Below are positions 18,848-49,592 of a stretch of 64,000 nucleotides of DNA, piece by piece; within the stretch, counting starts at the first letter, position 1, and every line of letters begins with the position of its first letter. Below the pieces are notes generated by a model, which worked only from the letters and a program-made list of their open reading frames with translations, was not told where the DNA came from and did no database searches. The DNA is taken from the IMG/VR virus record IMGVR_UViG_3300005293_000009, positions 1 to 64,000 of that record; one strand, given 5' to 3'. This DNA comes from a virus. Made by a program: the position numbers and the translations under genes.

Positions 18848-18872
18848 CAACCAAAACCGTTACTGCTAGACT
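18844..18872 (+). promoter_or_regulatory. Promoter of rIIB homologue
   Basis: TTGACA and TAGACT with a 17-base spacer. The -35 overlaps the rIIA stop. The leader is about 25 bases. Confidence 0.85.
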
Positions 18873-18901
18873 GGCAGTAATCCAACGAAAGGACAGCCAC
18901 C

Positions 18902-20023
18902 GTGGCATTCTATTCAATTCAGTCCAGCGATGAATTCTCTGGTGCGACCGTCATCTTCCCTGACGGGAGCACGCAGACCATCGCATCGGACAACGCGAAC
19001 TATGAGACGGTCGTCAAGGGCCTTCTCGATGGTTCGCTGTCGGACGATCAGCTTCTCGATCTGATCGCCCCCTTCGAAGCGATCTACAAGACGCTGACGA
19101 AGCTCTCCGAGCGGGTCTCCCGCAAGGGTTCCAAGCTCCTGTTCGACGGCGATGTGGTGAGCAGCAAGCTCAGCAACTTCATCATCGAACTCATGAACGA
19201 GGGCAAGGACGAGGCCTGGAAGGCGTACGTGGCCTTCATGGAGAAGCTGTACACCAACCCCTCCGAGCAGTCGCGTGAGCACCTGTTTCACTTCATCGAG
19301 GACAACGGCCTCCAGCTTACGGCAGACGGTGACCTCCTGCTCTACAAGGGCACCAAGGAGGACGGCAAGTCCACCCACGCCGGTTATGGAATCGTAAACG
19401 GTGTCGAGTTCCAGAACGACTACCTCCAGAACGCGCTCGGCGCTGTCGTGGAGATTCCTCGTTCGCTGGTGGACGAGGATCGTGGCTCGCTCTGCTCGAC
19501 CGGTCTGCACGTCGGTGCGTTCGAGTACGTCACCGGCAACTACGTGTCCACCTGGCCGCGCCTGTGGCTCGTGCTGGTCAACCCGCGCGATGTGGTCGCG
19601 GTCCCGCACGACTACCACTCCAGCAAGATTCGCGTCACGCGCTACGTCGTGGTCGGGGAGCTTGGTGCGACCCGCGAAGCCACGAAGTACGAGGGTCTGA
19701 TCTGGACGCCCGGTGACGTTGCGCCTGAGGCCGACGAGTTCGAAGAGGACGACGAGGACTTCTACGCAGACGAGTACGACGAGGCTGACTACAGCGAGTA
19801 CGATGAGGATGAGGACGAGCCCATTCAGGTTCAGGCTTCTGCCCCGGCTACCGTGGCGAAGTCGGCCACCGACTCGCGTGTCGAAGAGTACAAGAAGGTC
19901 ATCCGCGATCTGATCGCTCAGGACCCGAACGTCTCCCTTCGCCGGTACCGCTCGAAGAAGGTCACCGCTGCTCGCCGTGGCGAGTTCAAGCAGGCCGCTG
20001 AGGAACTGGGCTTCAAGCTCTAA
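18902..20023 (+). CDS. rIIB: RIIB-like protein
   Basis: 373 residues from a GTG at 18902, with AAAGGA upstream. The N-terminal half includes F-H-F-I-E-D-N-G-L, Y-K-G-T-K-E-D and C-S-T-G-L-H-V-G, as in RIIB-type proteins of T4 and actinophages. Residues about 278-315 are a very acidic linker of Asp/Glu/Tyr. A basic helical C-terminal part follows (R-R-Y-R-S-K-K), possibly nucleic-acid binding. In T4, RIIB acts with RIIA in lysis timing and exclusion. Ends at a strong terminator. Confidence 0.85.
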   Translation: MAFYSIQSSDEFSGATVIFPDGSTQTIASDNANYETVVKGLLDGSLSDDQLLDLIAPFEAIYKTLTKLSERVSRKGSKLLFDGDVVSSKLSNFIIELMNEGKDEAWKAYVAFMEKLYTNPSEQSREHLFHFIEDNGLQLTADGDLLLYKGTKEDGKSTHAGYGIVNGVEFQNDYLQNALGAVVEIPRSLVDEDRGSLCSTGLHVGAFEYVTGNYVSTWPRLWLVLVNPRDVVAVPHDYHSSKIRVTRYVVVGELGATREATKYEGLIWTPGDVAPEADEFEEDDEDFYADEYDEADYSEYDEDEDEPIQVQASAPATVAKSATDSRVEEYKKVIRDLIAQDPNVSLRRYRSKKVTAARRGEFKQAAEELGFKL

Positions 20024-21844: not shown

Positions 21845-22021
21845 ATGAACAAGTTCCGCGACAAGATCGCACACGCCGTGTCCAACTGGGTGCTGAACCA
21901 TATCGCCACGGAAGACTACCGTGAGAAGCTGGAGTTCATCATCGTCCTCGGCATGAATGAGCTTGAGCAGCGCGCTCAGGACGAGCGTGAATACATCGCA
22001 TGGAAGAAGGGCCAGGCATGA
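21845..22021 (+). CDS. Small helical protein before the prs-like gene
   Basis: 58 residues, charged and helical, ending K-K-G-Q-A. It is the first gene of a leaderless transcript and is coupled by ATGA to the PRPP-synthetase-like gene. It may serve as a leader cistron that gives the second gene ribosome access. Unknown family. Confidence 0.75.
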   Translation: MNKFRDKIAHAVSNWVLNHIATEDYREKLEFIIVLGMNELEQRAQDEREYIAWKKGQA

Positions 22022-22950
22022 CCATCAAATTCACCGCCAAGCACAAGAGCGGTTTCAGCGTCCACTCTCAGCTTTCCGCGTTCCTCTTCCCCGATGGGGC
22101 GGCGCACATCAAGGGCGCTGACAACGAGGCGAACGAGGGCGAGTTCCTGTACGAGGTCGCGGACCTTCGCGGCTTCAGCCACACCGACCTCTTCACGCTA
22201 GCCATGTGGGCCAACGCCTGCGACAACCGTGCCGTGGACAAGGTGCTCATCCTGCCGTACCTCCCCGGTGCGCGCATGGATCGTGGCAACCCGGAAGGTG
22301 CTGCCGTCTACTCGTGGTTCATCCTGAACGATGTCAACCCCCGCCAGATCATCACCATCGATCCGCACTCGGAGCGGGCACGGAACAATTTCTACGAGGT
22401 CTACGAGCGGGACGGTCGGCTGGACAAGTTCACCGTCTTCCCTGTGGAGCGCATCATCCGCAGGGGAGTGCAGGACGCCACCAGCGACTCCAAGCCGAAC
22501 AACACCTACCAGGGTGTCATCGCCCCGGACAAGGGGGCTCACGACCGAGCAGCGCGTGCTGCGGAGGTCATGGGGGTTCCGGTCTACACCGGAGGCAAGA
22601 CGCGCGACTTCGAAACCGGCAAGATCACCGGCTTCCACATGGAGGACGAGCTTCCCGACGAGGGCCGCTTCCTCATTGTAGATGACATCTGTGACGGTGG
22701 CGGAACCTTCCTCGCTCTCGCTGAGGCTACGGGCCTTCCGAAGGAACGGCTGGACCTGTGGGTCACGCACGGCATCTTCTCGAAGGGGCTCAAGGAACTG
22801 CTGAACCATTTCGGAACCATCCACACCACGGACTCGTACCTCGGCGGTGATGAGAATGACCCCATCCTCGCTCAGGTCATGATGAGCGGGGGGCGTGTCA
22901 AGATTCACCCCCTCACACCCTACCTGTACCCGGAGATTAGCCCCGCCTAG
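22018..22950 (+). CDS. prs: Ribose-phosphate pyrophosphokinase-like (PRPP or ADPR-PP synthetase)
   Basis: 310 residues. L-P-Y-L-P-G-A-R-M-D-R corresponds to the ATP-site block of PRPP synthetases, D-P-H-S-E to the metal/His block, and L-I-V-D-D-I-C-D-G-G-G-T (V221-T230) to the PRPP-binding loop. It should make PRPP from ribose-5-phosphate and ATP, feeding the NAMPT encoded nearby. The sequence is divergent from bacterial housekeeping Prs. A known phage relative (Adps of the NARP1 pathway) instead pyrophosphorylates ADP-ribose; motif reading cannot tell which substrate is used here. Confidence 0.85.
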   Translation: MTIKFTAKHKSGFSVHSQLSAFLFPDGAAHIKGADNEANEGEFLYEVADLRGFSHTDLFTLAMWANACDNRAVDKVLILPYLPGARMDRGNPEGAAVYSWFILNDVNPRQIITIDPHSERARNNFYEVYERDGRLDKFTVFPVERIIRRGVQDATSDSKPNNTYQGVIAPDKGAHDRAARAAEVMGVPVYTGGKTRDFETGKITGFHMEDELPDEGRFLIVDDICDGGGTFLALAEATGLPKERLDLWVTHGIFSKGLKELLNHFGTIHTTDSYLGGDENDPILAQVMMSGGRVKIHPLTPYLYPEISPA

Positions 22951-22954
22951 GGGG

Positions 22955-22984
22955 TTGACAAACCTAACCAGAAAGACGTAGACT
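22955..22984 (+). promoter_or_regulatory. Leaderless promoter of lipoprotein gene
   Basis: TTGACA and TAGACT with an 18-base spacer; the -10 is six bases before the ATG at 22991. Confidence 0.85.
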
Positions 22985-22990
22985 AAGAAC

Positions 22991-23407
22991 ATGAAAACAC
23001 GCACAAAGATCACAGGCGTAGGCCTCGCGGCAGTCCTGGGCGTCTTCGCCCTCACCGGGGCCGCATGTGCCTCCGACGCCGACAAGGCTTCCGAGAACAT
23101 CAGCACCGCCGCCGAAGCCTTCGAGGTCCAGCGTACGCTGGTCGCTACCAACGGCATCACCGGACAGGTCATGCTCTTCGCTGAGGGTCGCTGCTCGTTC
23201 GAGCACCCCAGCAAGATTCGCATCGACATCACATGCAAGTACGGCCCGGATGAGTACCGCCGTCACACCTACATCAAGGGTGATCAGGATCAGGTCGTCA
23301 TCAGCCAGGAAGAGTCCATCGATGTGAGCGAGTACCACTCGCGCATCGTCATCAAGCCGCAGAACGTCATCCCCGAGTTCGACATCATGGTGGGCGAGGA
23401 CGAGTAG
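22991..23407 (+). CDS. Predicted lipoprotein
   Basis: 138 residues with a basic n-region (K-T-R-T-K), a hydrophobic stretch and the lipobox L-T-G-A-A-C, giving a mature lipid-modified Cys near residue 27. The mature part is about 110 residues, mostly beta, with two further Cys that could pair. A phage-encoded surface lipoprotein could exclude superinfecting phages, as known for others, but no homologue is recognised. It sits between the prs-like and NAMPT genes as a single-gene unit with its own promoter and terminator. Confidence 0.8.
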   Translation: MKTRTKITGVGLAAVLGVFALTGAACASDADKASENISTAAEAFEVQRTLVATNGITGQVMLFAEGRCSFEHPSKIRIDITCKYGPDEYRRHTYIKGDQDQVVISQEESIDVSEYHSRIVIKPQNVIPEFDIMVGEDE

Positions 23408-23417
23408 TCCGACCCCT

Positions 23418-23451
23418 AAGTAGCCCCGGTCTTCGGATCGGGGCTACTTCC
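23418..23451 (+). terminator. Hairpin terminator after lipoprotein gene
   Basis: A perfect eleven-base stem (AAGTAGCCCCG / CGGGGCTACTT) with a ten-base loop. Confidence 0.85.
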
Positions 23452-23461
23452 ATATCTGGAC

Positions 23462-23491
23462 TTGACACCGATGCGATCATCGGTATAGACT
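23462..23491 (+). promoter_or_regulatory. Promoter of NAMPT gene
   Basis: TTGACA with TAGACT at 18 bases, or TATAGA at 16. A leader of about 35 bases ends in AAAGG before the ATG at 23530. Confidence 0.8.
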
Positions 23492-23529
23492 GAGTACAGA
23501 CCGAAAGACAATCAACCAGAAAGGCTCGC

Positions 23530-25047
23530 ATGAGCAAGTTCGACCCCATCCAGGCACTCATCGATACCGATGCGTACAAGCTCGGGCATATCCACATGTA
23601 CCCGGAGGGAACCACGCGAGTCCTCTCCAACTTCACCGACCGAGGCTCTCGCATCCCGGACCTGACGCACACGGTCCACTTCGGACTTCAGGCGTTCCTC
23701 CACTCGTGGATCACCGACGCCTGGGCACCCTTCTTCGCGGCGGATGAGGATCAGGTCTGCGACCTGTACGAAGAGTTCACCACGTCTGTCATCGGGCCGA
23801 ACACCATCGGCACGGATCACATTCGTGCCCTGCATAAGCTCGGATACCTGCCGCTCCGCTTCCGCTCGCTGCCGGAAGGTAGCCGCGTCCCGATCCGGGT
23901 TCCGAAGTTCACGGTGGAGAACACCGTACCGGAATTCTTCTGGCTGACGAACTACATCGAGACGGCAATGTCCTCGGAAGTTTGGCAGATCGCCACGTCC
24001 GCCACCATCGCTGACCGCTTCCGTAAGCTGCTCGATGAGTGGGCAATCAAGACGACCGGCTCGACCGAGGGTGTGCAGTGGCAGGGCCACGACTTCTCGT
24101 TCCGTGGCATGGCTGGCGTTCACGCCGCCGCGCTGTCGGGTATGGGGCACGCACTCAGCTTCACCGGCTCGGACAACCTCAACGTCATCCGCGCGGTGGA
24201 CAACTACTACGGCCCTGCCGAGGGTCTGATCATCGGATCGGTCCCCGCTACAGAGCACTCGGTCGCTACCGCCTTCGGCCCTGCCGATGAGCTTGGATAC
24301 TTCAACCGTATCCTGGACCAGAATCCCGCTGGCATCCTCTCGGCAGTCTCCGACTCGTACGACCTGTGGAATGTCCTCACCGATATCCTTCCGCAGATCA
24401 AGGACCGTATCCTCTCGCGTGACGGCAAGCTCGTCATCCGCCCGGACAGCGGCAACCCTGTGGATATCCTCACCGGCACTATCCAGAACACCGACCCGGA
24501 GTGGGGACGTTCAGTCAACACCCGCACGCCTGCCGAAGTCGGCACCGTGGAACTGCTGTGGGATGTCTTCGGCGGCACCGTCAACGAGCAGGGCTACAAG
24601 GTCCTGGACCCGCACATCGGCGTCATCTACGGTGACTCGATCACCTATGACCGCGCGCTGCAAATCTTCCAGCGGCTTGAAGCGAAGGGTTTCGCTTCGA
24701 CCAATGTCGTGTTCGGCGTCGGCAGCTTCACCTACCAGTACCAGACTCGTGACACGTTCATGAGCGCCATGAAGGCGACCTGGGTACAGGTCAACGGTGA
24801 GGGTAAGGACATCTTCAAGGACCCGGCTACCGACAGCGGGACCAAGAAGTCGGCTCGCGGTCGGATCGCGGTCCTTCAGGATTCGACTGGCGACTACTTC
24901 CTGGTGGACAGCACGTCATCGCCCGACGCCTCCGAGATTGAGGGTGGAGATTTCGATCACCTGAATACTGTCTGGGAGGACGGTAAGTTCCTGGTCGAAC
25001 ACACCTTCGCTGAGGTCCGCGCACGTCTGGGGCATATCAATGGCTAA
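23530..25047 (+). CDS. nadV: Nicotinamide phosphoribosyltransferase (NAMPT)
   Basis: 505 residues, close to the usual length of about 490. D-T-D-A-Y-K-L-G-H and N-F-T-D-R-G-S-R lie near the N-terminus; V-P-A-T-E-H-S carries the catalytic His243 and R-P-D-S-G-N-P (304-310) the nicotinamide-ribose site. It condenses nicotinamide with PRPP to nicotinamide mononucleotide in the cytoplasm. The PRPP-synthetase-like, PnuC and NadR-like genes within 6 kb complete an NAD+ salvage route. A Namat-like activity on ADP-ribose pyrophosphate is an alternative if the prs-like enzyme is an Adps. The next gene overlaps its end by eight bases. Confidence 0.92.
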   Translation: MSKFDPIQALIDTDAYKLGHIHMYPEGTTRVLSNFTDRGSRIPDLTHTVHFGLQAFLHSWITDAWAPFFAADEDQVCDLYEEFTTSVIGPNTIGTDHIRALHKLGYLPLRFRSLPEGSRVPIRVPKFTVENTVPEFFWLTNYIETAMSSEVWQIATSATIADRFRKLLDEWAIKTTGSTEGVQWQGHDFSFRGMAGVHAAALSGMGHALSFTGSDNLNVIRAVDNYYGPAEGLIIGSVPATEHSVATAFGPADELGYFNRILDQNPAGILSAVSDSYDLWNVLTDILPQIKDRILSRDGKLVIRPDSGNPVDILTGTIQNTDPEWGRSVNTRTPAEVGTVELLWDVFGGTVNEQGYKVLDPHIGVIYGDSITYDRALQIFQRLEAKGFASTNVVFGVGSFTYQYQTRDTFMSAMKATWVQVNGEGKDIFKDPATDSGTKKSARGRIAVLQDSTGDYFLVDSTSSPDASEIEGGDFDHLNTVWEDGKFLVEHTFAEVRARLGHING

Positions 25048-25408
25048 GACGAATTCGCTCAAGGAAGTTCCGTACGGTACAAAGCGGCTGAGGGTGGGGA
25101 AGGACCTTGTGGAGTACCCTACCCTCCTGGAGTACACCTACGGCAGTCCGGAGTATCCCTCTGCGGGTGTCACCTACAAGGACAACCTGCCGTTCGAGGC
25201 CACGCTGAAGATCGTCTCTCTTGAGCGAGGACGTTCGGCGGCACGATTCTGGTTTCAAGATATTGATACCGGCACCTACTATCCGTTCTTCGGGCAGACC
25301 CTTGTTGATATGTTGGAGCGTACTGTGGCAGATCATGGTGTCGTTGAGGGCACCTGGATTGCCGTCAAGAAGGGTTCCAACTACGGCATCGAACTGTACA
25401 CCCCCTGA
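25040..25408 (+). CDS. Hypothetical protein coupled to NAMPT
   Basis: 122 residues, beta-rich, with A-R-F-W-F-Q-D-I-D-T-G near residue 70 and no membrane segment. It overlaps the NAMPT stop. I do not recognise the family; a small modulator of the NAD+ enzymes is only a guess from position. Confidence 0.75.
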   Translation: MAKTNSLKEVPYGTKRLRVGKDLVEYPTLLEYTYGSPEYPSAGVTYKDNLPFEATLKIVSLERGRSAARFWFQDIDTGTYYPFFGQTLVDMLERTVADHGVVEGTWIAVKKGSNYGIELYTP

Positions 25409-25410
25409 GG

Positions 25411-25439
25411 TTGACACCGGTTACTGGAGACGCTAGGCT
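25411..25439 (+). promoter_or_regulatory. Leaderless promoter
   Basis: TTGACA and TAGGCT with a 17-base spacer, six bases before the ATG at 25446. Confidence 0.85.
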
Positions 25440-25445
25440 TTAATC

Positions 25446-25565
25446 ATGCGAAGACGACTTCGAATCTGGATTTACTGGCTGAGCGAGAACGCCGCAGCCG
25501 TCCGGGGGGATTTCCCCACAGCCCGCTATTACCTCGCCAGGAGAATAGAAGAGGAAAACAAGTGA
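25446..25565 (+). CDS. 39-residue basic peptide
   Basis: Begins M-R-R-R-L-R-I-W-I-Y-W-L and ends E-E-E-N-K. It is the first cistron of a leaderless transcript and overlaps the next gene by GTGA. It may be a real peptide with an amphipathic basic/aromatic helix or a translation-coupling leader. Confidence 0.65.
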   Translation: MRRRLRIWIYWLSENAAAVRGDFPTARYYLARRIEEENK

Positions 25566-25756
25566 CACGTTTTGAAGTAGTCTTTGAGACCGCGCTCTAC
25601 CGCTCGGTGTTCGTTGAGGCCGCTGACAGAGAAGAGGCGGAGACGCTGGCGGTGGAGAATCACTTCCCCGCCAGTGAGCTTCCGCTGCCTCCGGGGTACG
25701 ATCTGAACCCCGACTGGTTTGTTGAAGGAACGGTGCGGGTGCGCGATGACGACTGA
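25562..25756 (+). CDS. Small hypothetical protein
   Basis: 64 residues from a GTG overlapping the previous stop. F-E-V-V-F-E-T and V-F-V-E-A-A-D-R-E-E-A-E form a beta-alpha pattern; a short ferredoxin-like or PepSY-like fold is possible. Unknown function. Confidence 0.7.
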   Translation: MTRFEVVFETALYRSVFVEAADREEAETLAVENHFPASELPLPPGYDLNPDWFVEGTVRVRDDD

Positions 25757-25934
25757 CACCGAACTGCATTCGTCCGACGAGTGGTCGATTCTGCTCGATG
25801 TTCTCGTGGTCAATCCTGACGGATGGGATCGCTCGAACTTTGCACAGGACTGGGCTCGCCCCATTACCCGTCCGGAGTTCATCCGGAAGGTTGGGATGAG
25901 CACCATCGACATGAGAGGGCGGCGGGGCCGATGA
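25746..25934 (+). CDS. Small hypothetical protein
   Basis: 62 residues from the ATG at 25746, overlapping the previous gene by 11 bases and the next by four. Trp-containing, otherwise unremarkable; it ends in a basic R-G-R-R-G-R tail. Confidence 0.65.
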   Translation: MTTDTELHSSDEWSILLDVLVVNPDGWDRSNFAQDWARPITRPEFIRKVGMSTIDMRGRRGR

Positions 25935-26116
25935 CTGATGAGAAGCCTGTAGCCCTCGGCTGGGTAGACGTGGACCAACTTGCCGCACGTATTGAGCGGG
26001 AAGTAGAGCCCTCATTTCTGGAACTGGTTTACGGCAACCCCGCCAACACCAGAACCGTCGAGTCCCTGCTTCAAGAGGTTTACCGCCAGAGGGGGTGCCA
26101 TGTCGGACGTAGGTGA
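25931..26116 (+). CDS. Small hypothetical protein
   Basis: 61 residues, coupled by ATGA to the gene before it and overlapping the next by 17 bases. Helical, with the pattern L-A-A-R-I-E-R-E. Unknown. Confidence 0.65.
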   Translation: MTDEKPVALGWVDVDQLAARIEREVEPSFLELVYGNPANTRTVESLLQEVYRQRGCHVGRR

Positions 26117-26351
26117 CGTGAACCAGGCGCATACGCCTGGCAGCGGTGGCACCCTCGGAGACGAGCTTGAGACCTACCTGCTCGCTGCCCAGCGTGTCCA
26201 TGAGGGCGGCACCATGCTTGACCGTATGGTGTTCCAGTCGCTCCACAACGCGCAGAATGTGATCACCCTCGGCAAGATCATCACCGCTCTTGAGGAAGAG
26301 AATCGGACGCTGATGGAAATGCTGTACGGGGGACTTGACGGAATGGGTTGA
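26100..26351 (+). CDS. Small helical hypothetical protein
   Basis: 83 residues, last gene of this five-gene set of small coupled cistrons. The C-terminal half (A-Q-N-V-I-T-L-G-K-I-I-T-A-L-E-E-E) is a likely helix or short coiled coil. Unknown. Confidence 0.7.
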   Translation: MSDVGDVNQAHTPGSGGTLGDELETYLLAAQRVHEGGTMLDRMVFQSLHNAQNVITLGKIITALEEENRTLMEMLYGGLDGMG

Positions 26352-26363
26352 GTGCGGTAGGCT
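26335..26363 (+). promoter_or_regulatory. Leaderless promoter of pnuC operon
   Basis: TTGACG and TAGGCT with a 17-base spacer, six bases before the ATG at 26370. Confidence 0.85.
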
Positions 26364-26369
26364 TACTCC

Positions 26370-26522
26370 ATGGCAACCAACGAGTTCAGGTCCAGTAACG
26401 GATTCACCGTCCGCACCGTGGACTACCAACACATCTACATCGACAACGTGTACCTCAACCGCCCACACCTGGAGGCGCTTTTGGAGTACGCCGAATATCT
26501 GAGAGAGAATCCAATCCGATGA
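26370..26522 (+). CDS. 50-residue protein upstream of pnuC
   Basis: First cistron of a leaderless message, coupled by ATGA to the PnuC gene. It contains T-V-D-Y-Q-H-I-Y-I-D-N-V-Y. As before the prs-like gene, a tiny first cistron precedes the enzyme gene. Confidence 0.7.
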   Translation: MATNEFRSSNGFTVRTVDYQHIYIDNVYLNRPHLEALLEYAEYLRENPIR

Positions 26523-27448
26523 GCATTCCCCACATCCCCACGCCGGTCTCTGGCGTCGTGCGATTCGTCAAGAACGATATCTTCATCGCGTTTGTGGTCG
26601 CAATCGTCCTGTCGGGGGCGACCTTCGCACTCGGCTTCGCGCTGCACTGGTTCCCGAACGGGGTCAACGGCTTCGAGGTTGCCGCCGCCACGCTGAACTA
26701 CGGCGCGACCTACCTCAGCATCAAGCAGCGCCGGTTCGCCTACACCCTCGGCTTCGTGGCGTCTGCCTTCTGGGCGGTCGCGTACTACCAGTACAACCTG
26801 CTTGGCTCCGCGATCCTCTCGCTGTACCTTGTGGGTCAGCTTATCTATGGCTACTTCCGCTGGGGTCCTGACGGCAAGACGCGCCCGGTGCATAAGTTCC
26901 AGTGGAAGTGGGCGTGGGCCTATGCGCTCGCTACCGTGCTCACCTACGCGGGTGCGGTCGGTATCATTACCCTCTTCGGCGGCAGCTTCGCCTTCTGGGA
27001 TGGTGCCATTCTGGTGCTGACTATCCTCGCGCAGTTCCTCCTGGACAACAAGGTGCTCTCGTCTTGGTACGTGTGGGGTGCCGTCAACGTGATCGGTGTC
27101 GTGCTCTACACTACGGCAGGCGCTCCGTTCGCTGCGGTCCAGCAGTTCATCTTCGGCGTGGCTAACATCTGGGGCTTCATTGCCTGGAAGAAGAGCATGG
27201 AAAATTCGGGTGAAAATTTTTCTGAAAGGGCCATTTCAAAATCAGAGCCCAAAGAAGAATCTCGTCTAATGTTCATAGATGAATCAACGGGCGAGAGCCC
27301 TCTCGTCAAGCGTCTCGTGGGTGAGCAGTACAGCGGAAGCTCGAAGGTGGACGCCACATTCCACCCGCACACGTCTCTGTTCCTGATGAGCGGTGAGAAG
27401 CCGATCATCCGTGACGCGACCACCGAAATCGATCAAATCAAGCCCTGA
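26519..27448 (+). CDS. pnuC: PnuC-type nicotinamide riboside transporter
   Basis: 309 residues with about seven membrane segments in residues 20-225. A-A-T-L-N-Y-G-A-T-Y-L-S and Q-F-L-L-D-N-K-V-L-S-S-W-Y-V-W are typical PnuC blocks. It should move nicotinamide riboside through the cytoplasmic membrane by facilitated diffusion, trapped inside by phosphorylation. The NadR-like gene next to it has the needed kinase domain. Residues about 226-309 form an extra soluble Ser/Glu-rich tail not usual in PnuC; its coding part has an AT-richer stretch near 27200-27280. Confidence 0.9.
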   Translation: MSIPHIPTPVSGVVRFVKNDIFIAFVVAIVLSGATFALGFALHWFPNGVNGFEVAAATLNYGATYLSIKQRRFAYTLGFVASAFWAVAYYQYNLLGSAILSLYLVGQLIYGYFRWGPDGKTRPVHKFQWKWAWAYALATVLTYAGAVGIITLFGGSFAFWDGAILVLTILAQFLLDNKVLSSWYVWGAVNVIGVVLYTTAGAPFAAVQQFIFGVANIWGFIAWKKSMENSGENFSERAISKSEPKEESRLMFIDESTGESPLVKRLVGEQYSGSSKVDATFHPHTSLFLMSGEKPIIRDATTEIDQIKP

Positions 27449-27450
27449 GC

Positions 27451-27479
27451 TTGACACACGAAGGGCCGTCAGGTAGGCT
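27451..27479 (+). promoter_or_regulatory. Leaderless promoter of nadR-like gene
   Basis: TTGACA and TAGGCT with a 17-base spacer, six bases before the ATG at 27486. Confidence 0.9.
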
Positions 27480-27485
27480 GAGAGC

Positions 27486-28535
27486 ATGACAAAAGCTTTC
27501 GTCCTCATGACCGCTCTCCCACCGACCTTTGGTCATCTGGACCTGATCCAGTTCGCCGGTAATCTGTTCGTGGACCAGGTGACTGTGTTGCTGAATACTG
27601 ATCCTCGTGAGCCGCTGGCGAGAGAGCGCTACTACGCGCTGTCTCTGGCTGTCAACAAGCTTGCCCTTGGTGGGAAGATTCATGTGCTGTGGCAGAACGA
27701 AGAGGTCCAGCAGGAGCCTACCGACCCTGACGACCAAGCTTTCTGGGATGACTGGGTAGCTAACCTCGTCCGCTTCGGCTTCGAGCCGGGTGACTACATC
27801 GTAGCGTCTGAGCAGTACGGTGTGCGTCTGGCGGCGGAAGCTCGTGGGAGATTCATGCCTTACGACCGGGACCGCTGGGTGCGCTATACCAAGGGCACCA
27901 AGGCGCGTGAGGATTACCTTCAGGAGTGGAGCAACATTCTCCCCGAGTTCCGTCACAACCTACAGAAGAAGGTGACAATCTTCGGTGCGGAATCCACCGG
28001 CAAGACGACACTGACAGAATCGCTAGCTAGTGACGCATTCTTCGGGATGTCCACTAAGCTGTTCGAGTGGGCGCGTCCGTTCCTGGAAATGACCGGGCCG
28101 GAAGTTACTCGGGAAGGTATGTACCGAATTTGGGAGGGGCAGTATGCTCTCCAGGCTTCGACCTACGAGAATGCGCTGAAGCCGCTCGTGATTCAGGATA
28201 CCGACCTCTTCACCACCATCGGATTCTGGGAGGACTGGGAACCGGATACGGTGCCGCAGGGCATCTACCCGAGCGCTCGCGAAACGCAGAGCGACCTGTA
28301 CATCCTGACAAAGAGCAACATCCCGTTCGAGCACGACATCCTGCGGTATGGGGGAGACGAGCGTCAGACGAGTGATGAGTACTGGCTTGACATCTGTGCG
28401 CGTCATGGGCTAAACTACATAGTACTGGACGGTGACGATCCGAAGGAACGCCTCATGGAGGCTTCTGAAGCGATCTGGGACCTTCTGGAAGACAACCCCC
28501 TGACCTACAAGCGCATCGGAGCAGAATATGCCTGA
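27486..28535 (+). CDS. nadR: NadR-like NMN adenylyltransferase / nicotinamide riboside kinase
   Basis: 349 residues in two domains. The N-terminal M-T-A-L-P-P-T-F-G-H-L-D is a nucleotidyltransferase H-x-G-H-like block, here with H-L-D in place of the second His. The C-terminal domain has G-A-E-S-T-G-K-T (167-174), a P-loop of the NadR kinase type, and Q-D-T-D-L-F-T-T near 240. It would adenylate NMN to NAD+ and phosphorylate nicotinamide riboside brought in by PnuC. No repressor helix-turn-helix is present, unlike enterobacterial NadR. The altered H-L-D should be checked for activity. Confidence 0.88.
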   Translation: MTKAFVLMTALPPTFGHLDLIQFAGNLFVDQVTVLLNTDPREPLARERYYALSLAVNKLALGGKIHVLWQNEEVQQEPTDPDDQAFWDDWVANLVRFGFEPGDYIVASEQYGVRLAAEARGRFMPYDRDRWVRYTKGTKAREDYLQEWSNILPEFRHNLQKKVTIFGAESTGKTTLTESLASDAFFGMSTKLFEWARPFLEMTGPEVTREGMYRIWEGQYALQASTYENALKPLVIQDTDLFTTIGFWEDWEPDTVPQGIYPSARETQSDLYILTKSNIPFEHDILRYGGDERQTSDEYWLDICARHGLNYIVLDGDDPKERLMEASEAIWDLLEDNPLTYKRIGAEYA

Positions 28536-45771: not shown

Positions 45772-45914
45772 TACTTTGTAGACCAACTGAATCGATCCGA
45801 GAAAGAACCCAGGCATTTAAGGGGTTTCGGACGTGAAAGTTGCTGAAAAGCAGGCCGTCTCGTTGAATAAGCGAAGATTTATCCTGCATAGTTCACACTA
45901 CAAAGGATTTGTAC

Positions 45915-46820
45915 ATGCAGGAAATCGAAGCAGGGGAACCCGCTGAGCTAGAGATTGAAGCCCCGCCAGGGCTGCTTCCCGACCTCGAAGCATGGGGCAT
46001 TGTCGAGATTGAGCGTGGTGTTTGCGAAGATACCTTTGAAAACCGGAAGGCTATCCGAGCCAATAAGGGCAAGGCCAATACCGTCTTCGATAGTAATGGA
46101 AACCCAACAGGCTATCTACAGGTGGTCACGGCGGAAATGTACGCCACCGCTCAAGGCCTGTCAAAAAGCGATCTTCTTTCCGACCCGGACGATTACAACT
46201 CCGACTACCTCAACGGTGTCAAGCTCCTGCTCGCTCAGAACGCAGACCACCTGGCACCGACGTGGGTCCTCAATACTACCAAAACTTTTATCCGTCAGCA
46301 AGACCGTATCAAGGAACTCGGCGCAGACGGCGAACTGTACGCCAGCCAGACTCGGCTCGTAACCGTACCGCACCGTTGCAAGACGACGAAGGCTGACGGC
46401 ACGCGATGCTGGGGCTGGGCAGACGGTAGCTCGGACCTGAACGGCATGTGCCGTGTACACGCACGGCGCGCGAACCGCTCCCCCTCACACGGCCTGAGTA
46501 CACGCCAGATTATGCGCAACCGTATGGACTCCGCCGTCCCCGGTCTGTGGGAAAAGCTGGAAGTGCTGACCGACTCGGAAGACGAGCGCATTGCGCTGAC
46601 CGCTATCCGTGACATGATGGACCGTGCCGGTTACAAGGCCGTGGACCACGTTGAGCAGAAGGTCGAAGTAACCGTAACCGACGCCTCGGACGTTGTGAAG
46701 GATCGCCTCAAGAAACTGAAGAAGGGCCAGGACGACAAGGCCGCACTTCTCAAGCAGATGCGTGAAGCAACCGCCGCCGAAGATGTAGTAGACGCGGAGG
46801 TTGTTGACGATGACGAGTGA
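45915..46820 (+). CDS. Terminase-small-subunit-like protein
   Basis: 301 residues from the ATG at 45915, with AAAGG upstream. H-R-C-K, C-W-G-W and C-R-V-H-A form a zinc-like set near residues 156-178. E-D-E-R-I-A-L-T-A-I-R-D-M-M-D-R-A-G-Y and the V-E-Q-K-V-E-V-T-V segment resemble the helical oligomerisation end of phage small terminases. No large terminase lies in the window, so the call is tentative; a DNA-binding protein of another kind is possible. It begins the AACCG-rich zone. Confidence 0.55.
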   Translation: MQEIEAGEPAELEIEAPPGLLPDLEAWGIVEIERGVCEDTFENRKAIRANKGKANTVFDSNGNPTGYLQVVTAEMYATAQGLSKSDLLSDPDDYNSDYLNGVKLLLAQNADHLAPTWVLNTTKTFIRQQDRIKELGADGELYASQTRLVTVPHRCKTTKADGTRCWGWADGSSDLNGMCRVHARRANRSPSHGLSTRQIMRNRMDSAVPGLWEKLEVLTDSEDERIALTAIRDMMDRAGYKAVDHVEQKVEVTVTDASDVVKDRLKKLKKGQDDKAALLKQMREATAAEDVVDAEVVDDDE

Positions 46821-46968
46821 AGCCCGCGAGAAGCTAGAGCAGATGCGCGACCAAATAGTTTTTGACGCACAGGGGGCGCTCTCCCGCGCGGAGCTTCAGC
46901 GTCTACGGCAGTACTGGGGTGACATTACCCAGATTCTCCAGCTTGACACGGACGCCAAGGGCGAGTAA
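46810..46968 (+). CDS. 52-residue helical protein
   Basis: From the ATG at 46810, overlapping the previous stop by 11 bases. E-A-R-E-K-L-E-Q-M-R-D is a clear helix. Its end contains the next promoter. Confidence 0.65.
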   Translation: MTSEAREKLEQMRDQIVFDAQGALSRAELQRLRQYWGDITQILQLDTDAKGE

Positions 46969-46971
46969 ACT
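46943..46971 (+). promoter_or_regulatory. Leaderless promoter
   Basis: TTGACA and TAAACT with a 17-base spacer, six bases before the ATG at 46978. Confidence 0.88.
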
Positions 46972-46977
46972 AAGACC

Positions 46978-47220
46978 ATGCTCACAACCGAACGGCTCGC
47001 CGCACTGCACGCTGTCAAGAACGGCGAGGTAACCGTGCGGAAAGTCAGCGCGCCGGGACTCCCCTGGAGATTCCAGCCTGCCGAGCGAACCGTAGCACTC
47101 GGGTTCCTGCTGAAGGCGGACCTGATTTCGGTAACCGCTGAGTTCGGCCCGAACCGTTCACGACCGTCAACCGTGACACTCACGGATCGAGGGTGGCGTG
47201 CTATTCGAGCTACGGCGTGA
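46978..47220 (+). CDS. Possible winged-helix protein
   Basis: 80 residues. R-L-A-A-L-H-A-V-K and L-T-D-R-G-W-R-A-I-R near the C-terminus have the look of a MarR/PadR-type wing end, but the fold is too short to be sure. Coding strand is packed with AACCG words. Confidence 0.55.
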   Translation: MLTTERLAALHAVKNGEVTVRKVSAPGLPWRFQPAERTVALGFLLKADLISVTAEFGPNRSRPSTVTLTDRGWRAIRATA

Positions 47221-47386
47221 ACTGATCCGGCTTGCGAACCGTAACCGTCTGAGCGCGGAAGCCGTGACCGACCTACTGGACCTCGCGGAGCATCTGAACG
47301 GCCTGGTTGTAGACGAGGATGACCGTGAACTTCTCACCGCCGAGCATGTGCTAGACTTCTGGCAGGAGAGTTTCGATGAATCGTAG
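47198..47386 (+). CDS. Small helical protein, GTG start
   Basis: 62 residues from the GTG at 47198, overlapping both neighbours. L-I-R-L-A-N-R-N-R and V-T-D-L-L-D-L-A-E-H are amphipathic helices. Unknown. Confidence 0.6.
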   Translation: MLFELRRELIRLANRNRLSAEAVTDLLDLAEHLNGLVVDEDDRELLTAEHVLDFWQESFDES

Positions 47387-48131
47387 ACAACGGCAAGCAA
47401 CCGCAACCGCTATCGTGTCTGAAGCGAAGCGGCACGTTGGGTATCGCGCCCAACCGCAGCGCCGTAGCGCCTTTGCCCTTAAGCAGTACCTCGGGAAAGC
47501 GTGGAACGGCACGTTCATAGACCGCGTACTCCATGACGCATTCGGAGACTTCGCGGAAGTGCGGTTTGTGTCAACCGTGTCAGCGCTCGGGTACTACCTG
47601 AACCGTAACCGTGTCTATCACAAGCCCCGGCCCGGAGACATCGCGTTCTTCAACTTCGCATCGAACCCGCTGGAACCGTTCGAGCAACCGCACGTTGGTG
47701 TGGTAATTTCGGTTGAACCGAACGGCTCGTTCCGAACCGTAGAGGGCGAGACTTCACCCGGCACGCCTCAAGGGTCGCAGCTTGCAGACGGTGTATTCGA
47801 GAGAGTGCGGCACGTAACCGATACCGTAGGCTTCGTGCGCCCAACCGTACGGAAGATCGAACCGCTAGACGGCACGCCTACAACCGTGCAGATGAGCTAC
47901 TTCGACTCGAACCCCAGTACGCGCGCCAAGGCAATCGAAACCGTGCAGCGAGCGCTGAACCGTGTACGGCCTGCTTGGACGTTCAACCGTGGCAAGAAGG
48001 ACGGCGAGTTTAAGAGCGCTCTCGGCCTGTACGCTCGTGAGACGGGAACCGTGGAGAACCGTGGCGAACTGACGTACCCGGTACTCGACACCCTCGGAAC
48101 CGAGACCGGCGTGTATACGGTAGACTCATGA
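47376..48131 (+). CDS. CHAP/NlpC-like protein without catalytic cysteine
   Basis: 251 residues, with AGGAGAG before the ATG. W43-N44-G-T-F occupies the place where CHAP amidases have Trp-Cys; P-G-D-I-A-F-F, H106-V-G-V-V and V-E-G-E-T follow as in CHAP domains. The Cys is replaced by Asn, so a standard cysteine hydrolase is unlikely. Residues about 175-251 may bind peptidoglycan or DNA. It could be an inactive wall-binding protein or an unusual lysin. Carries twenty AACCG words on the coding strand. Confidence 0.65.
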   Translation: MNRRQRQATATAIVSEAKRHVGYRAQPQRRSAFALKQYLGKAWNGTFIDRVLHDAFGDFAEVRFVSTVSALGYYLNRNRVYHKPRPGDIAFFNFASNPLEPFEQPHVGVVISVEPNGSFRTVEGETSPGTPQGSQLADGVFERVRHVTDTVGFVRPTVRKIEPLDGTPTTVQMSYFDSNPSTRAKAIETVQRALNRVRPAWTFNRGKKDGEFKSALGLYARETGTVENRGELTYPVLDTLGTETGVYTVDS

Positions 48132-48379
48132 CACGCTCAGAACGGTGCAAGTCTGACGACCTCTTCGACAACGAGCACCACCGATGCATCGGCGCGATCT
48201 ACACCGGCTGGCTCGAAGAAGGCGTGCCGTGTGAGTGCGCCTGCCACAAGCTTCCACGGTGCTTCACACCGTATGTCGCAAACCACGGAACCGGCATCTA
48301 CGACTGCGACCTACACGAAGGGCACGGCGGGAACTTTCACTCACACAGAGGTCGGATACTTTGGTCGAAGCGTGTTTGA
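48128..48379 (+). CDS. Cys/His-rich protein
   Basis: 83 residues with five Cys and eight His; C-E-C-A-C-H near residue 38 and C-D-L-H-E-G-H near 60 suggest zinc binding. Coupled to the previous gene by ATGA. Confidence 0.75.
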   Translation: MTRSERCKSDDLFDNEHHRCIGAIYTGWLEEGVPCECACHKLPRCFTPYVANHGTGIYDCDLHEGHGGNFHSHRGRILWSKRV

Positions 48380-48404
48380 CATCGAGTAAACCGTGTGCTA
48401 GAGT
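48376..48404 (+). promoter_or_regulatory. Promoter of candidate small RNA
   Basis: TTGACA and TAGAGT with a 17-base spacer. No start codon follows at leaderless distance and no good gene before the terminator at 48496. Confidence 0.8.
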
Positions 48405-48410
48405 AGTCTT

Positions 48411-48532
48411 ACGTCCAGGTAGTAAACGCCGAAACGGTATTACGAAACAACGTGCCAAACCGGGTGAGTGGTTCCTGTGCCTCCCCGGCTCTCGGCAAAA
48501 CCCCGCTCATCAGTTACGGCGGGGTTTTGTTG
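48411..48532 (+). ncRNA. Candidate small non-coding RNA
   Basis: About 120 bases between a consensus promoter and a strong terminator. GCCGA near 48428 can pair with TCGGC near 48491, and CCGGG near 48457 with CCCGG near 48484, giving a nested fold. A 29-codon GTG frame overlaps but has no ribosome site. No known RNA family recognised; it does not fold as a tRNA. Confidence 0.5.
48496..48532 (+). terminator. Intrinsic terminator of the candidate RNA
   Basis: A perfect eleven-base stem CAAAACCCCGC / GCGGGGTTTTG with a twelve-base loop and a following T-rich tail. Confidence 0.92.
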
Positions 48533-48570
48533 TTGGTACGGCGTGCCACATAACCGTAACCGGTTTGTGG

Positions 48571-48576
48571 TAGGCT
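48571..48576 (+). promoter_or_regulatory. Leaderless -10 TAGGCT
   Basis: Six bases before the ATG at 48583; the -35 position does not resemble TTGACA, so strength is uncertain. Confidence 0.55.
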
Positions 48577-48582
48577 CGCAGC

Positions 48583-48831
48583 ATGTCCCACGTAGAGATT
48601 CACTGGCTTGAGACCGCAACCGATGCGGCACGCCTGGAGTACGCCGGTCTGCCCCGGCTCGACCTTGAACCGTCACAGTGCACGGCGTGCAACGCAAGAG
48701 TTGGGGAGGTAAACGGCACGAACGGTGATGTCTTCTGGAAACCGTGCGGCCTGGTGCTCAACGGTGATGCAATCGGCACGCTCTGCCGCAAGTGCTTCGC
48801 TCCAGTTGACAAAAGCCTCACGGCACGCTAA
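48583..48831 (+). CDS. Four-cysteine zinc protein
   Basis: 82 residues with C-T-A-C near residue 33 and C-R-K-C near 68, a split zinc ribbon. Unknown function. Confidence 0.7.
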   Translation: MSHVEIHWLETATDAARLEYAGLPRLDLEPSQCTACNARVGEVNGTNGDVFWKPCGLVLNGDAIGTLCRKCFAPVDKSLTAR

Positions 48832-48834
48832 GCT
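48806..48834 (+). promoter_or_regulatory. Leaderless promoter
   Basis: TTGACA and TAAGCT with a 17-base spacer, six bases before the ATG at 48841. Confidence 0.88.
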
Positions 48835-48840
48835 GACGGC

Positions 48841-49083
48841 ATGAGAAGCAACAGCAAACCGGTCCCGATTCGCGACCTGTCCGAAGAGGACCAACGCGGT
48901 CTCGTCGGAAACGTCGTGACCGTGAAGGTCTACGAAGACCTGGAAACACAGGAACCGTCCGCCACACTACATGGGCGGCTCGCCTTGATCGCCCTGACCC
49001 CGGACGGCACCGTCGTAGTCTTCGAGTACCAGCCCAACTTCCAGCCTGTACCGGCGTCTCAGCCGATCACTGTCGAGTGGTGA
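48841..49083 (+). CDS. Small beta protein, first of a likely paralogous pair
   Basis: 80 residues. The order helix, V-V-T-V-K-V, A-T-L-H-G-R-L-A-L, V-V-V-F-E-Y, P-V-P-A is shared with the next gene. Unknown function. Confidence 0.7.
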   Translation: MRSNSKPVPIRDLSEEDQRGLVGNVVTVKVYEDLETQEPSATLHGRLALIALTPDGTVVVFEYQPNFQPVPASQPITVEW

Positions 49084-49089
49084 CCCGGC

Positions 49090-49118
49090 TTGACAACGGT
49101 CGAACGGCACGCTAGGAT
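49090..49118 (+). promoter_or_regulatory. Near-leaderless promoter
   Basis: TTGACA and TAGGAT with a 17-base spacer; the ATG at 49126 is seven bases after the -10. Confidence 0.85.
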
Positions 49119-49125
49119 GGGAAGC

Positions 49126-49389
49126 ATGAAGGACACGTCCAAGACCATCCCACTCGCTGAGGTTGCTAGCTACAGCAACGGTGACCTCATCTATCTGATC
49201 GACCAGGTTGTCGTTCTCGACTTCACGGAGAACGGCGAGACCGCGACCGTAACTGGCACGCTCGAACTGCTGCTTCGAACCGACGAGGGGTTCGCCCTGA
49301 AGTTCGCCGGATACCCGGATGTCGTACCGGTGCCACTCGCCAGCGATGCAACGCTCTCGTTCACCGACTACGAGAAGTGGGGGCTCTGA
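49126..49389 (+). CDS. Small beta protein, second of a likely paralogous pair
   Basis: 87 residues from the ATG at 49126. D-L-I-Y-L, V-V-V-L-D-F, A-T-V-T-G-T-L-E-L and P-V-P-L-A line up with the gene before it. Similarity is low and read by eye. Confidence 0.7.
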   Translation: MKDTSKTIPLAEVASYSNGDLIYLIDQVVVLDFTENGETATVTGTLELLLRTDEGFALKFAGYPDVVPVPLASDATLSFTDYEKWGL

Positions 49390-49391
49390 TC

Positions 49392-49592
49392 ATGGCAGTT
49401 CATGGTGTGAGCGCAACCGCCAAGGGCAAGAACTCGGAACCGGGGGACTGGACCCTCAAGACCAACACCGGCAAGCCGGTACTGGATGAGAAGAACAAGC
49501 CCATCGCTGGGCTCTCATTCCGTTCGGCCAGTGACGCGGCGCGTAGTCACCTGACTCGTACGGGAGAGTACGTCTTCCCGATTCGCGGCTAA
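49392..49592 (+). CDS. Small hypothetical protein
   Basis: 66 residues from the ATG at 49392; a GTG at 49377 inside the upstream gene is an alternative. Contains A-T-A-K-G-K-N-S and A-A-R-S-H-L-T-R-T-G. Unknown; an antisense promoter lies just downstream. Confidence 0.65.
   Translation: MAVHGVSATAKGKNSEPGDWTLKTNTGKPVLDEKNKPIAGLSFRSASDAARSHLTRTGEYVFPIRG

What the first reader, a model, noticed from the sequence alone, without database searches (positions are those of the whole stretch)
46000..49300. Zone saturated with strand-biased AACCG words
In the gene at 47376-48131 I count twenty AACCG on the coding strand and about two on the other, where about one would be expected by chance. Enrichment begins in the gene at 45915 and continues past 49000, across several genes and a non-coding RNA locus, so it is not a single protein repeat. 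Polar, dense words can be recognition signals (as Chi or KOPS) or sites of a packaging, recombination or DNA-modifying protein.
Basis: seen in the sequence. Interest (0 to 1): 0.75.

Follow-up and report, generated by a model that had tools for sequence, protein, structure and literature searches.

The report
Polar word array at phage packaging end
A phage hides about 46 same-facing copies of the five-letter word AACCG in the first few thousand letters at the end of its chromosome, over the gene for its DNA-packaging recognition protein; relatives carry the same array with words that drift along with that protein, so it is probably the signal that tells the packaging motor where to start and which way to go.

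Summary
In detail: 20 AACCG against 2 CGGTT in 47376-48131, and 46 against 4 in 46000-49300 (about 3 expected). The excess survives synonymous-codon controls (44 observed, 19.5±2.7 permuted, 12.3 from the codon usage of the rest). It uses all three frames and also fills intergenic DNA.

The gene at 45915 is a small terminase (TerS) and the gene at 47376 a CHAP endolysin. In five complete Microbacterium phages (186-195 kb, exact direct terminal repeats of 15.5-20 kb) this block is the left physical end of the chromosome, and all five carry a polar AACCG array there; a sixth near-identical phage does too. It peaks 1.5-2 kb from the end and is absent elsewhere. By homology the cut lies near window 45854.

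In distant relatives the same TerS-endolysin block carries a related polar word (AACCG, AACGG or GACGG). 36 of 39 loci exceed every control window, and the word follows the TerS tree.

Best reading: a dispersed, polar recognition array for packaging, probably read by TerS. Binding and packaging are untested. Chi/KOPS is disfavoured. T7's CCTAAAG array at its left end is the nearest precedent.

The parts
45854..45914 (+). predicted left physical end of the phage chromosome (start of the long direct terminal repeat, packaging cut) and terS leader
   Evidence: alignment with the exact repeat starts of five complete Microbacterium phages, shared TCTCGTTG...TCACACTA...TTGTAC-ATGCAGGAAAT; position by homology, about ±5 nt
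46041..49442 (+). polar AACCG(T) word array, densest 46986-48953; 46 AACCG against 4 CGGTT in 46000-49300
45915..46820 (+). terS, small terminase subunit: conserved N-terminal domain, Cys3His element (C155, C165, C179, H182), C-terminal core like solved small terminases
   Evidence: PHROG 2538; profile match to 7joq and 6w7t, E 5e-6 and 4e-4; alignments A1 and A3
46810..46968 (+). 52-aa protein conserved in all six phages compared
46978..47220 (+). 80-aa protein, winged-helix-like by eye; only in this phage, Cece and Pumpernickel, so not the general reader of the word
47198..47386 (+). 62-aa protein conserved in all six phages; the Cece homologue is annotated as HTH
47376..48131 (+). CHAP endolysin gene; 20 AACCG in 756 bp
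   Evidence: Pfam CHAP and PHROG endolysin
48128..48379 (+). 83-aa Cys/His-rich ORF in the array
   Evidence: no family hit
48376..48537 (+). independent short transcription unit inside the array: promoter-like TTGACA-17-TAGAGT and a strong terminator hairpin; conserved in phage Big4
48583..48831 (+). 82-aa putative zinc-ribbon protein (CxxC...CxxC), conserved in all six phages
48841..49592 (+). three small ORFs (48841-49083, 49126-49389, 49392-49592) in the fading right part of the array

Best explanation
The zone is a cis-acting, direction-reading DNA signal at the left end of a long-terminal-repeat phage chromosome, used by the packaging machinery. Dozens of same-facing 5-6 bp words (5'-AACCG(T)) lie within 0-3.5 kb of the packaging cut, threaded through terS, the endolysin gene and their neighbours. 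Many weak, redundant, oriented contacts would load the ring on the phage concatemer next to the cut site and fix the side from which the large terminase cuts and pulls. Shown: position at the chromosome end in relatives, polarity, conservation, independence from the encoded protein, and a word that changes with the TerS lineage. Inferred: that a protein reads the words, that it is TerS, and that the act is packaging.
For: (1) In five complete relatives with exact direct terminal repeats of 15.5-20.0 kb the array lies in the first 3-4 kb of the left end (29/2, 42/3, 37/2, 18/3, 25/4 forward/reverse in 3 kb) against about 1 per kb on each strand in the core; the metaprofile peaks at +1.5-2 kb. 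(2) It covers terS, which stays at the end although terL is about 25 kb away in Cece. (3) Selection acts on the word itself: synonymous controls, all frames, intergenic density, and low sharing of exact sites at 50-60% nucleotide identity while counts stay high. (4) In 31 deduplicated lineages the top polar 5-mers at this locus are AACCG, GACGG, ACGGG and AACGG. RACSG words in the 3 kb after terS beat every control window on both strands in 36 of 39 loci, and the word follows the TerS tree (8 changes, shuffled mean 17.7, 0 of 200). (5) TerS lies directly upstream of the endolysin in all 26 endolysin loci tested. (6) Published precedents: P22 pac is a 22-bp asymmetric sequence inside the TerS gene (PMC9611059), SPP1 pac holds direct repeats over the start of terS (PMC4737164), and HK97 TerS is a ring thought to slide along DNA while reading it (PMC11331095). 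(7) The same detector recovers T7's polar CCTAAAG array at its left end (11/0 in 500 bp).
Against: No binding, cleavage or packaging data. An array over 3 kb is far longer than any pac or cos site known to me. It peaks 1.5-2 kb inside the end, not at the cut. Co-drift with TerS cannot be separated from co-drift with any linked gene. The words lie mostly in transcribed, co-oriented genes, so an RNA-level role is not excluded. T5 and SPO1, which also have long terminal repeats, show no such array at their left ends. In single distant relatives other polar words reach similar scores, so the evidence there is collective. In Cece the array is weak (18/3, plus GACCG 20/4).
Confidence: 0.55

Rival explanations
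1. An end-specific DNA signal for another process: protection or processing of the entering left end by a host or phage RecBCD/AddAB/AdnAB-type nuclease (Chi-like), recombination between the terminal repeats, or staged DNA entry.
For: The array sits at a physical DNA end and is polar; for a nuclease entering from the left the bottom-strand word would be 5'-ACGGTT, the orientation in which Chi is read (own knowledge of RecBCD polarity).
Against: No matching array near the right end. The word is depleted rather than enriched in a Microbacterium chromosome (obs/exp 0.83) and unskewed. The word drifts with TerS. Chi sites are not clustered by the dozen in 3 kb (own knowledge).
Confidence: 0.18
2. 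An RNA-level signal: the words act in the mRNAs of the terS-endolysin block (binding of an RNA-binding protein, antitermination or mRNA stability).
For: All genes in the zone run with the word, and the array ends near the end of this gene block in most phages.
Against: The array crosses a strong terminator (48496-48532) and promoter-like sites, so it spans several transcripts. Density is the same in intergenic DNA. Cece and Pumpernickel have copies in the gap beyond the block. Deposited chromosome ends coincide with the start of the array in five phages.
Confidence: 0.12
3. A binding array for a different linked DNA-binding protein (the conserved 62-aa or 82-aa zinc-ribbon protein), acting in packaging, replication or condensation of the end.
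For: Both small proteins are conserved in all six phages and lie inside the array.
Against: Neither has a detected DNA-binding family. The winged-helix-like 80-aa gene is missing in A3Wally, Big4 and Zooman, which carry strong arrays.
Confidence: 0.1
4. A by-product: local mutation bias, codon bias of late genes or protein repeats, without function.
For: Amino-acid content carries part of the excess (expected 12.3 rather than about 3).
Against: Survives codon permutation in six genomes. Only one strand is affected, coding and non-coding DNA alike. Rest-of-genome genes show no excess. Conserved at 42-79% protein identity with turnover of exact sites.
Confidence: 0.03

Closest known systems
pac sites of headful phages (P22, SPP1, SF6)
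   Same: lie in or at the start of the small terminase gene near the first packaging cut; asymmetric; SPP1 pac holds direct repeats (PMC9611059, PMC4737164)
   Different: tens to a few hundred bp with a handful of boxes; here about 46 copies of a 5-bp word over 3 kb including the endolysin and other genes; these phages have fixed long direct terminal repeats, not permuted headful ends
cos/cosB sites (lambda, HK97, PaP3) read by ring-shaped TerS
   Same: TerS-read sites beside the cut; polarity fixes packaging direction; C-terminal part of this TerS is related to the solved small terminases 7joq and 6w7t
   Different: no cohesive-end cos element sought or found; HK97 needs one 15-bp site 15 bp from the cut (PMC11331095)
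T7/T3 polar CCTAAAG arrays next to the terminal repeats (SRL/SRR)
   Same: many polar copies of a short word in the first few hundred bp at the left end of a terminally redundant genome (recovered here, 11/0)
   Different: 7-bp word, about 0.5 kb of mostly non-coding DNA just inside a 160-bp repeat; here 5 bp, 3.5 kb, inside genes and inside the 15-20 kb repeat, no right-end counterpart seen, and T7 terS is not there
Chi and KOPS
   Same: short polar words read by a translocating machine
   Different: not genome-wide, one cluster at one end, not enriched in the host genus

Membership tests
TerS-linked packaging initiation site (pac/cos type) | adjacent to a fixed packaging cut or chromosome terminus | tested here: met
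   deposited left termini of five relatives; array within 0-3.5 kb; the cut in the window is inferred by homology
TerS-linked packaging initiation site (pac/cos type) | located in or beside the small terminase gene | tested here: met
   terS is gene 1 and lies inside the array
TerS-linked packaging initiation site (pac/cos type) | asymmetric or repeated sequence elements | tested here: met
   46/4 polarity, repeated word
TerS-linked packaging initiation site (pac/cos type) | bound by TerS and required for cutting and packaging | not testable with these tools
   needs binding and transduction assays
T7-type terminal arrays (SRL/SRR) | polar short-word array at the left genome end | tested here: met
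   T7 control
T7-type terminal arrays (SRL/SRR) | second array beside the right terminal repeat boundary | tested here: not met
   AACCG at background around the right repeat end
Chi / KOPS | over-represented and co-oriented over the replicon or host chromosome | tested here: not met
   phage core about 1 per kb on both strands; host-genus sample obs/exp 0.83, no skew (skew test weak as GC skew is near zero)
small terminase subunit (TerS) | C-terminal oligomerisation core of known small terminases | tested here: met
   PHROG 2538, E 4.5e-6; profile match to 7joq, E 5.2e-6
small terminase subunit (TerS) | N-terminal helix-turn-helix DNA-binding domain | tested here: inconclusive
   N-terminal part predicted alone at pLDDT 67, no significant fold match; carries a Cys3His element instead

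The most novel reading that the evidence does not exclude
A new way of marking a viral chromosome for packaging: dozens of redundant, oriented 5-bp words written into the coding sequences of several genes, read by a sliding TerS ring that counts or averages many weak contacts, so that start, direction and perhaps the length of the terminal repeat are set by a word gradient rather than by one site; the word has drifted stepwise (AACCG-AACGG-GACGG) with the reading protein.
Probability: 0.35. Interest if true: 0.9.

Novelty: new variant of a known kind. Interest (0 to 1): 0.8.

Why it matters
How TerS rings pick out viral DNA is a long-standing problem, because known pac interactions are weak and hard to measure in vitro (PMC9611059), and how phages with 10-20 kb terminal repeats define both ends is unclear. 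A family-wide array with hundreds of natural word copies and several word dialects matched to TerS lineages gives a ready specificity code: swap experiments, selection for bound sequences and structures can be designed directly. It also gives a sequence-only way to locate packaging ends in metagenomic phage contigs.

Tried and rejected
Avoidance of forward AACCG downstream of the array: looked striking (about 0 forward, 1 per kb reverse), but synonymous permutation explains it (10 observed, 13.7±2.7). Helical phasing or fixed spacing: none. Extended motif: only a T after AACCG, no other flank information. Host Chi/KOPS: not supported. The winged-helix-like gene as reader: not universal. Known RNA family: no Rfam match. 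Known fold for the TerS N-terminal domain: only weak RRM-like hits from low-confidence models, nothing claimed. Bacterial genomes encoding a related TerS: none found. Same word array at the left ends of T5 and SPO1: none. Right boundary of the terminal repeat in this record: not found. Near nucleotide relatives of the zone in phage records: none. Literature search for AACCG with terminase, or for such arrays: nothing relevant in the held library. Polarity alone is not decisive in single distant loci, since codon-bias words such as GAAGA score as high.
Full report
OBSERVATION. The window is 64,000 of 66,415 bases of an IMG/VR virus record. AACCG occurs 20 times on the coding strand and its complement twice in 47376-48131. 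In 46000-49300 the counts are 46 and 4, against about 3 expected from the rest of the window; AACCG is the most enriched 5-mer and AACCGT (26/0) the most enriched 6-mer in an unbiased scan. There is no tandem repeat. Spacing is irregular, median 58 bp over six phages, with no helical phase. The motif is AACCG with a following T in about half the copies; other flanks carry no information.

CONTROLS. With the actual proteins and the codon usage of other genes in the window, 12.3 copies are expected in the array genes. With each gene's own synonymous codons permuted, 19.5±2.7 are expected (maximum 30 in 500). 44 are observed. Control genes give 16 observed against 17 expected. So amino-acid choice carries part of the excess and codon choice the rest, and neither explains it away. 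The same holds in five relatives (30 vs 15.8, 40 vs 15.2, 35 vs 15.5, 20 vs 9.3, 28 vs 15.2). All three frames are used. AACCG is as dense in intergenic DNA within the arrays (13.7 per kb pooled).

WHAT THE GENES ARE. 45915-46820 encodes a small terminase: PHROG 2538 and a profile match of residues 189-276 to the solved small terminases 7joq and 6w7t. Upstream of that core it has a conserved N-terminal region and a Cys3His element; structure models of this part are low in confidence and gave no fold assignment. 47376-48131 encodes a CHAP endolysin.

WHERE IT LIES. TerS and endolysin find seven Microbacterium phage records (186-195 kb; two are the same phage, Pumpernickel) and one lake phage. 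In the Microbacterium phages terS is gene 1, starting about 63 nt from the left end, and is repeated at the right end. The five genomes read in full have exact direct terminal repeats of 15,503, 17,669, 17,079, 18,079 and 19,963 bp. Aligning the repeat starts puts the corresponding end in the window at about 45854. Thus the record runs from the right part of the unique core (1-45853) into the terminal repeat. Every Microbacterium relative has the polar array in its first 3-4 kb. The pooled profile rises from the end, peaks at +1.5-2.0 kb (53 forward, 3 reverse per 500 bp over six phages) and is back to background by +4 kb, with a slight excess just outside the end. In Cece terL is split in two genes about 25 kb away, so terS sits with the array rather than with terL.

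HOW IT EVOLVES. In terS and endolysin alignments at 50-60% nucleotide identity usually only one to three sites of 6-20 are shared, while the counts stay high: density is kept, positions are not. Searches with alignments gave 22 TerS and 80 endolysin loci from viral contigs. All 26 endolysin loci examined have terS directly upstream. Many carry a polar word of the form [A/G]AC[C/G]G in the same place: AACCG in some, AACGG in others, GACGG (often TGACGG or GACGGG) in most, and mixtures. In 36 of 39 loci the forward count of these four words in the 3 kb after terS exceeds every control window on either strand of the same locus. Synonymous permutation supports the GACGG dialects too (for example GACGGG 13 vs 3.8, maximum 9; GACGG 14 vs 5.4, maximum 10). 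On a TerS tree of 39 rows the word needs 8 changes against 17.7 for shuffled labels (0 of 200 as low). Caution: in single distant loci other polar words score as high, so the case there rests on the recurrence of related words at one place.

MECHANISM. Shown: a selected, polar, DNA-spanning word array at the chromosome end, centred on terS and its neighbours, conserved in place and drifting in word with TerS. Inferred: TerS reads it. Established knowledge that fits: P22 pac lies inside the TerS gene and SPP1 pac holds direct repeats over the start of terS; HK97 TerS is a ring through which DNA passes and which is proposed to monitor sequence while sliding. Proposed: TerS rings load on the concatemer by many weak, same-facing contacts in the array next to the cut; orientation fixes which side the large terminase cuts and pulls; redundancy lets the signal live inside genes and turn over. 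How the 15-20 kb repeat is duplicated is not explained by this.

RIVALS. Chi or KOPS: disfavoured by the single location, no right-end counterpart, and under-representation in a Microbacterium chromosome sample (0.83 of expectation, no skew, although that genome has little GC skew). RNA signal: disfavoured by intergenic density and by a strong terminator and promoter-like sites inside the array, but not excluded, since all genes are co-oriented. Another linked protein: the winged-helix-like gene is not universal; two other small proteins are. Artefact of coding: rejected.

KNOWN KINDS. The nearest analogue is the polar CCTAAAG array at the left end of T7, recovered by the same detector (11/0 in the first 500 bp); its name and literature are from own knowledge. 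The present array differs in word length, extent, being within genes and inside the terminal repeat, and in having no right-end partner. It works like a pac or cos recognition region; membership needs TerS binding, which was not tested. Hence: new variant of a known kind.

LIMITS. Termini of relatives are as deposited. The host of the window phage is unknown. The right repeat boundary is not in the record or too diverged to see. The library of papers held is incomplete, so absence of a description is weak evidence of novelty.

Noticed in passing
window 48376-48537; phage Big4 2046-2244 (L013): A short non-coding RNA candidate with its own promoter-like sequence and a strong terminator (fold z -4.3), conserved in Big4; one stem seems to change on both sides (CCGGG/CCCGG here, CTAGG/CCTAG there). 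No Rfam match.
   Followed up: partly
L173 (phiCbK) about 700-1300: GGACCCT occurs 7 times on one strand and not on the other near the left end of Caulobacter phage phiCbK, another phage with long terminal repeats.
   Followed up: no
L172 (T5) about 9500-10200: AATCCGA occurs 6 times on one strand only at the right end of the T5 terminal repeat, within the annotated injection stop signal.
   Followed up: no
TerS loci of distant relatives, e.g. L078, L081, L090: A second word, AGGCC(T)/GGCCTG, often on both strands, is enriched in the same terS-endolysin zone (150 GGCCTG against 19 expected, pooled).
   Followed up: no
window 46000-49300: A further local word CGGCACGC (7 forward, 1 reverse) is enriched in this phage.
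   Followed up: no
L294 (phage Cece 25888-27230): The large terminase is annotated as two genes, nuclease domain first and ATPase domain second, far from terS.
   Followed up: no
window 22000-28535: A set of NAD-salvage genes (ribose-phosphate pyrophosphokinase, nicotinamide phosphoribosyltransferase, PnuC-like transporter, NMN adenylyltransferase), with rIIA/rIIB homologues at 16673-20023.
   Followed up: no
ends of the terminal repeats in L012-L016: The sequence just beyond the right repeat end (CTCTCAGC..CCAAACG) resembles the sequence at the left end (CTCTCGTTG..), which may mark a shared terminase cut motif.
   Followed up: no
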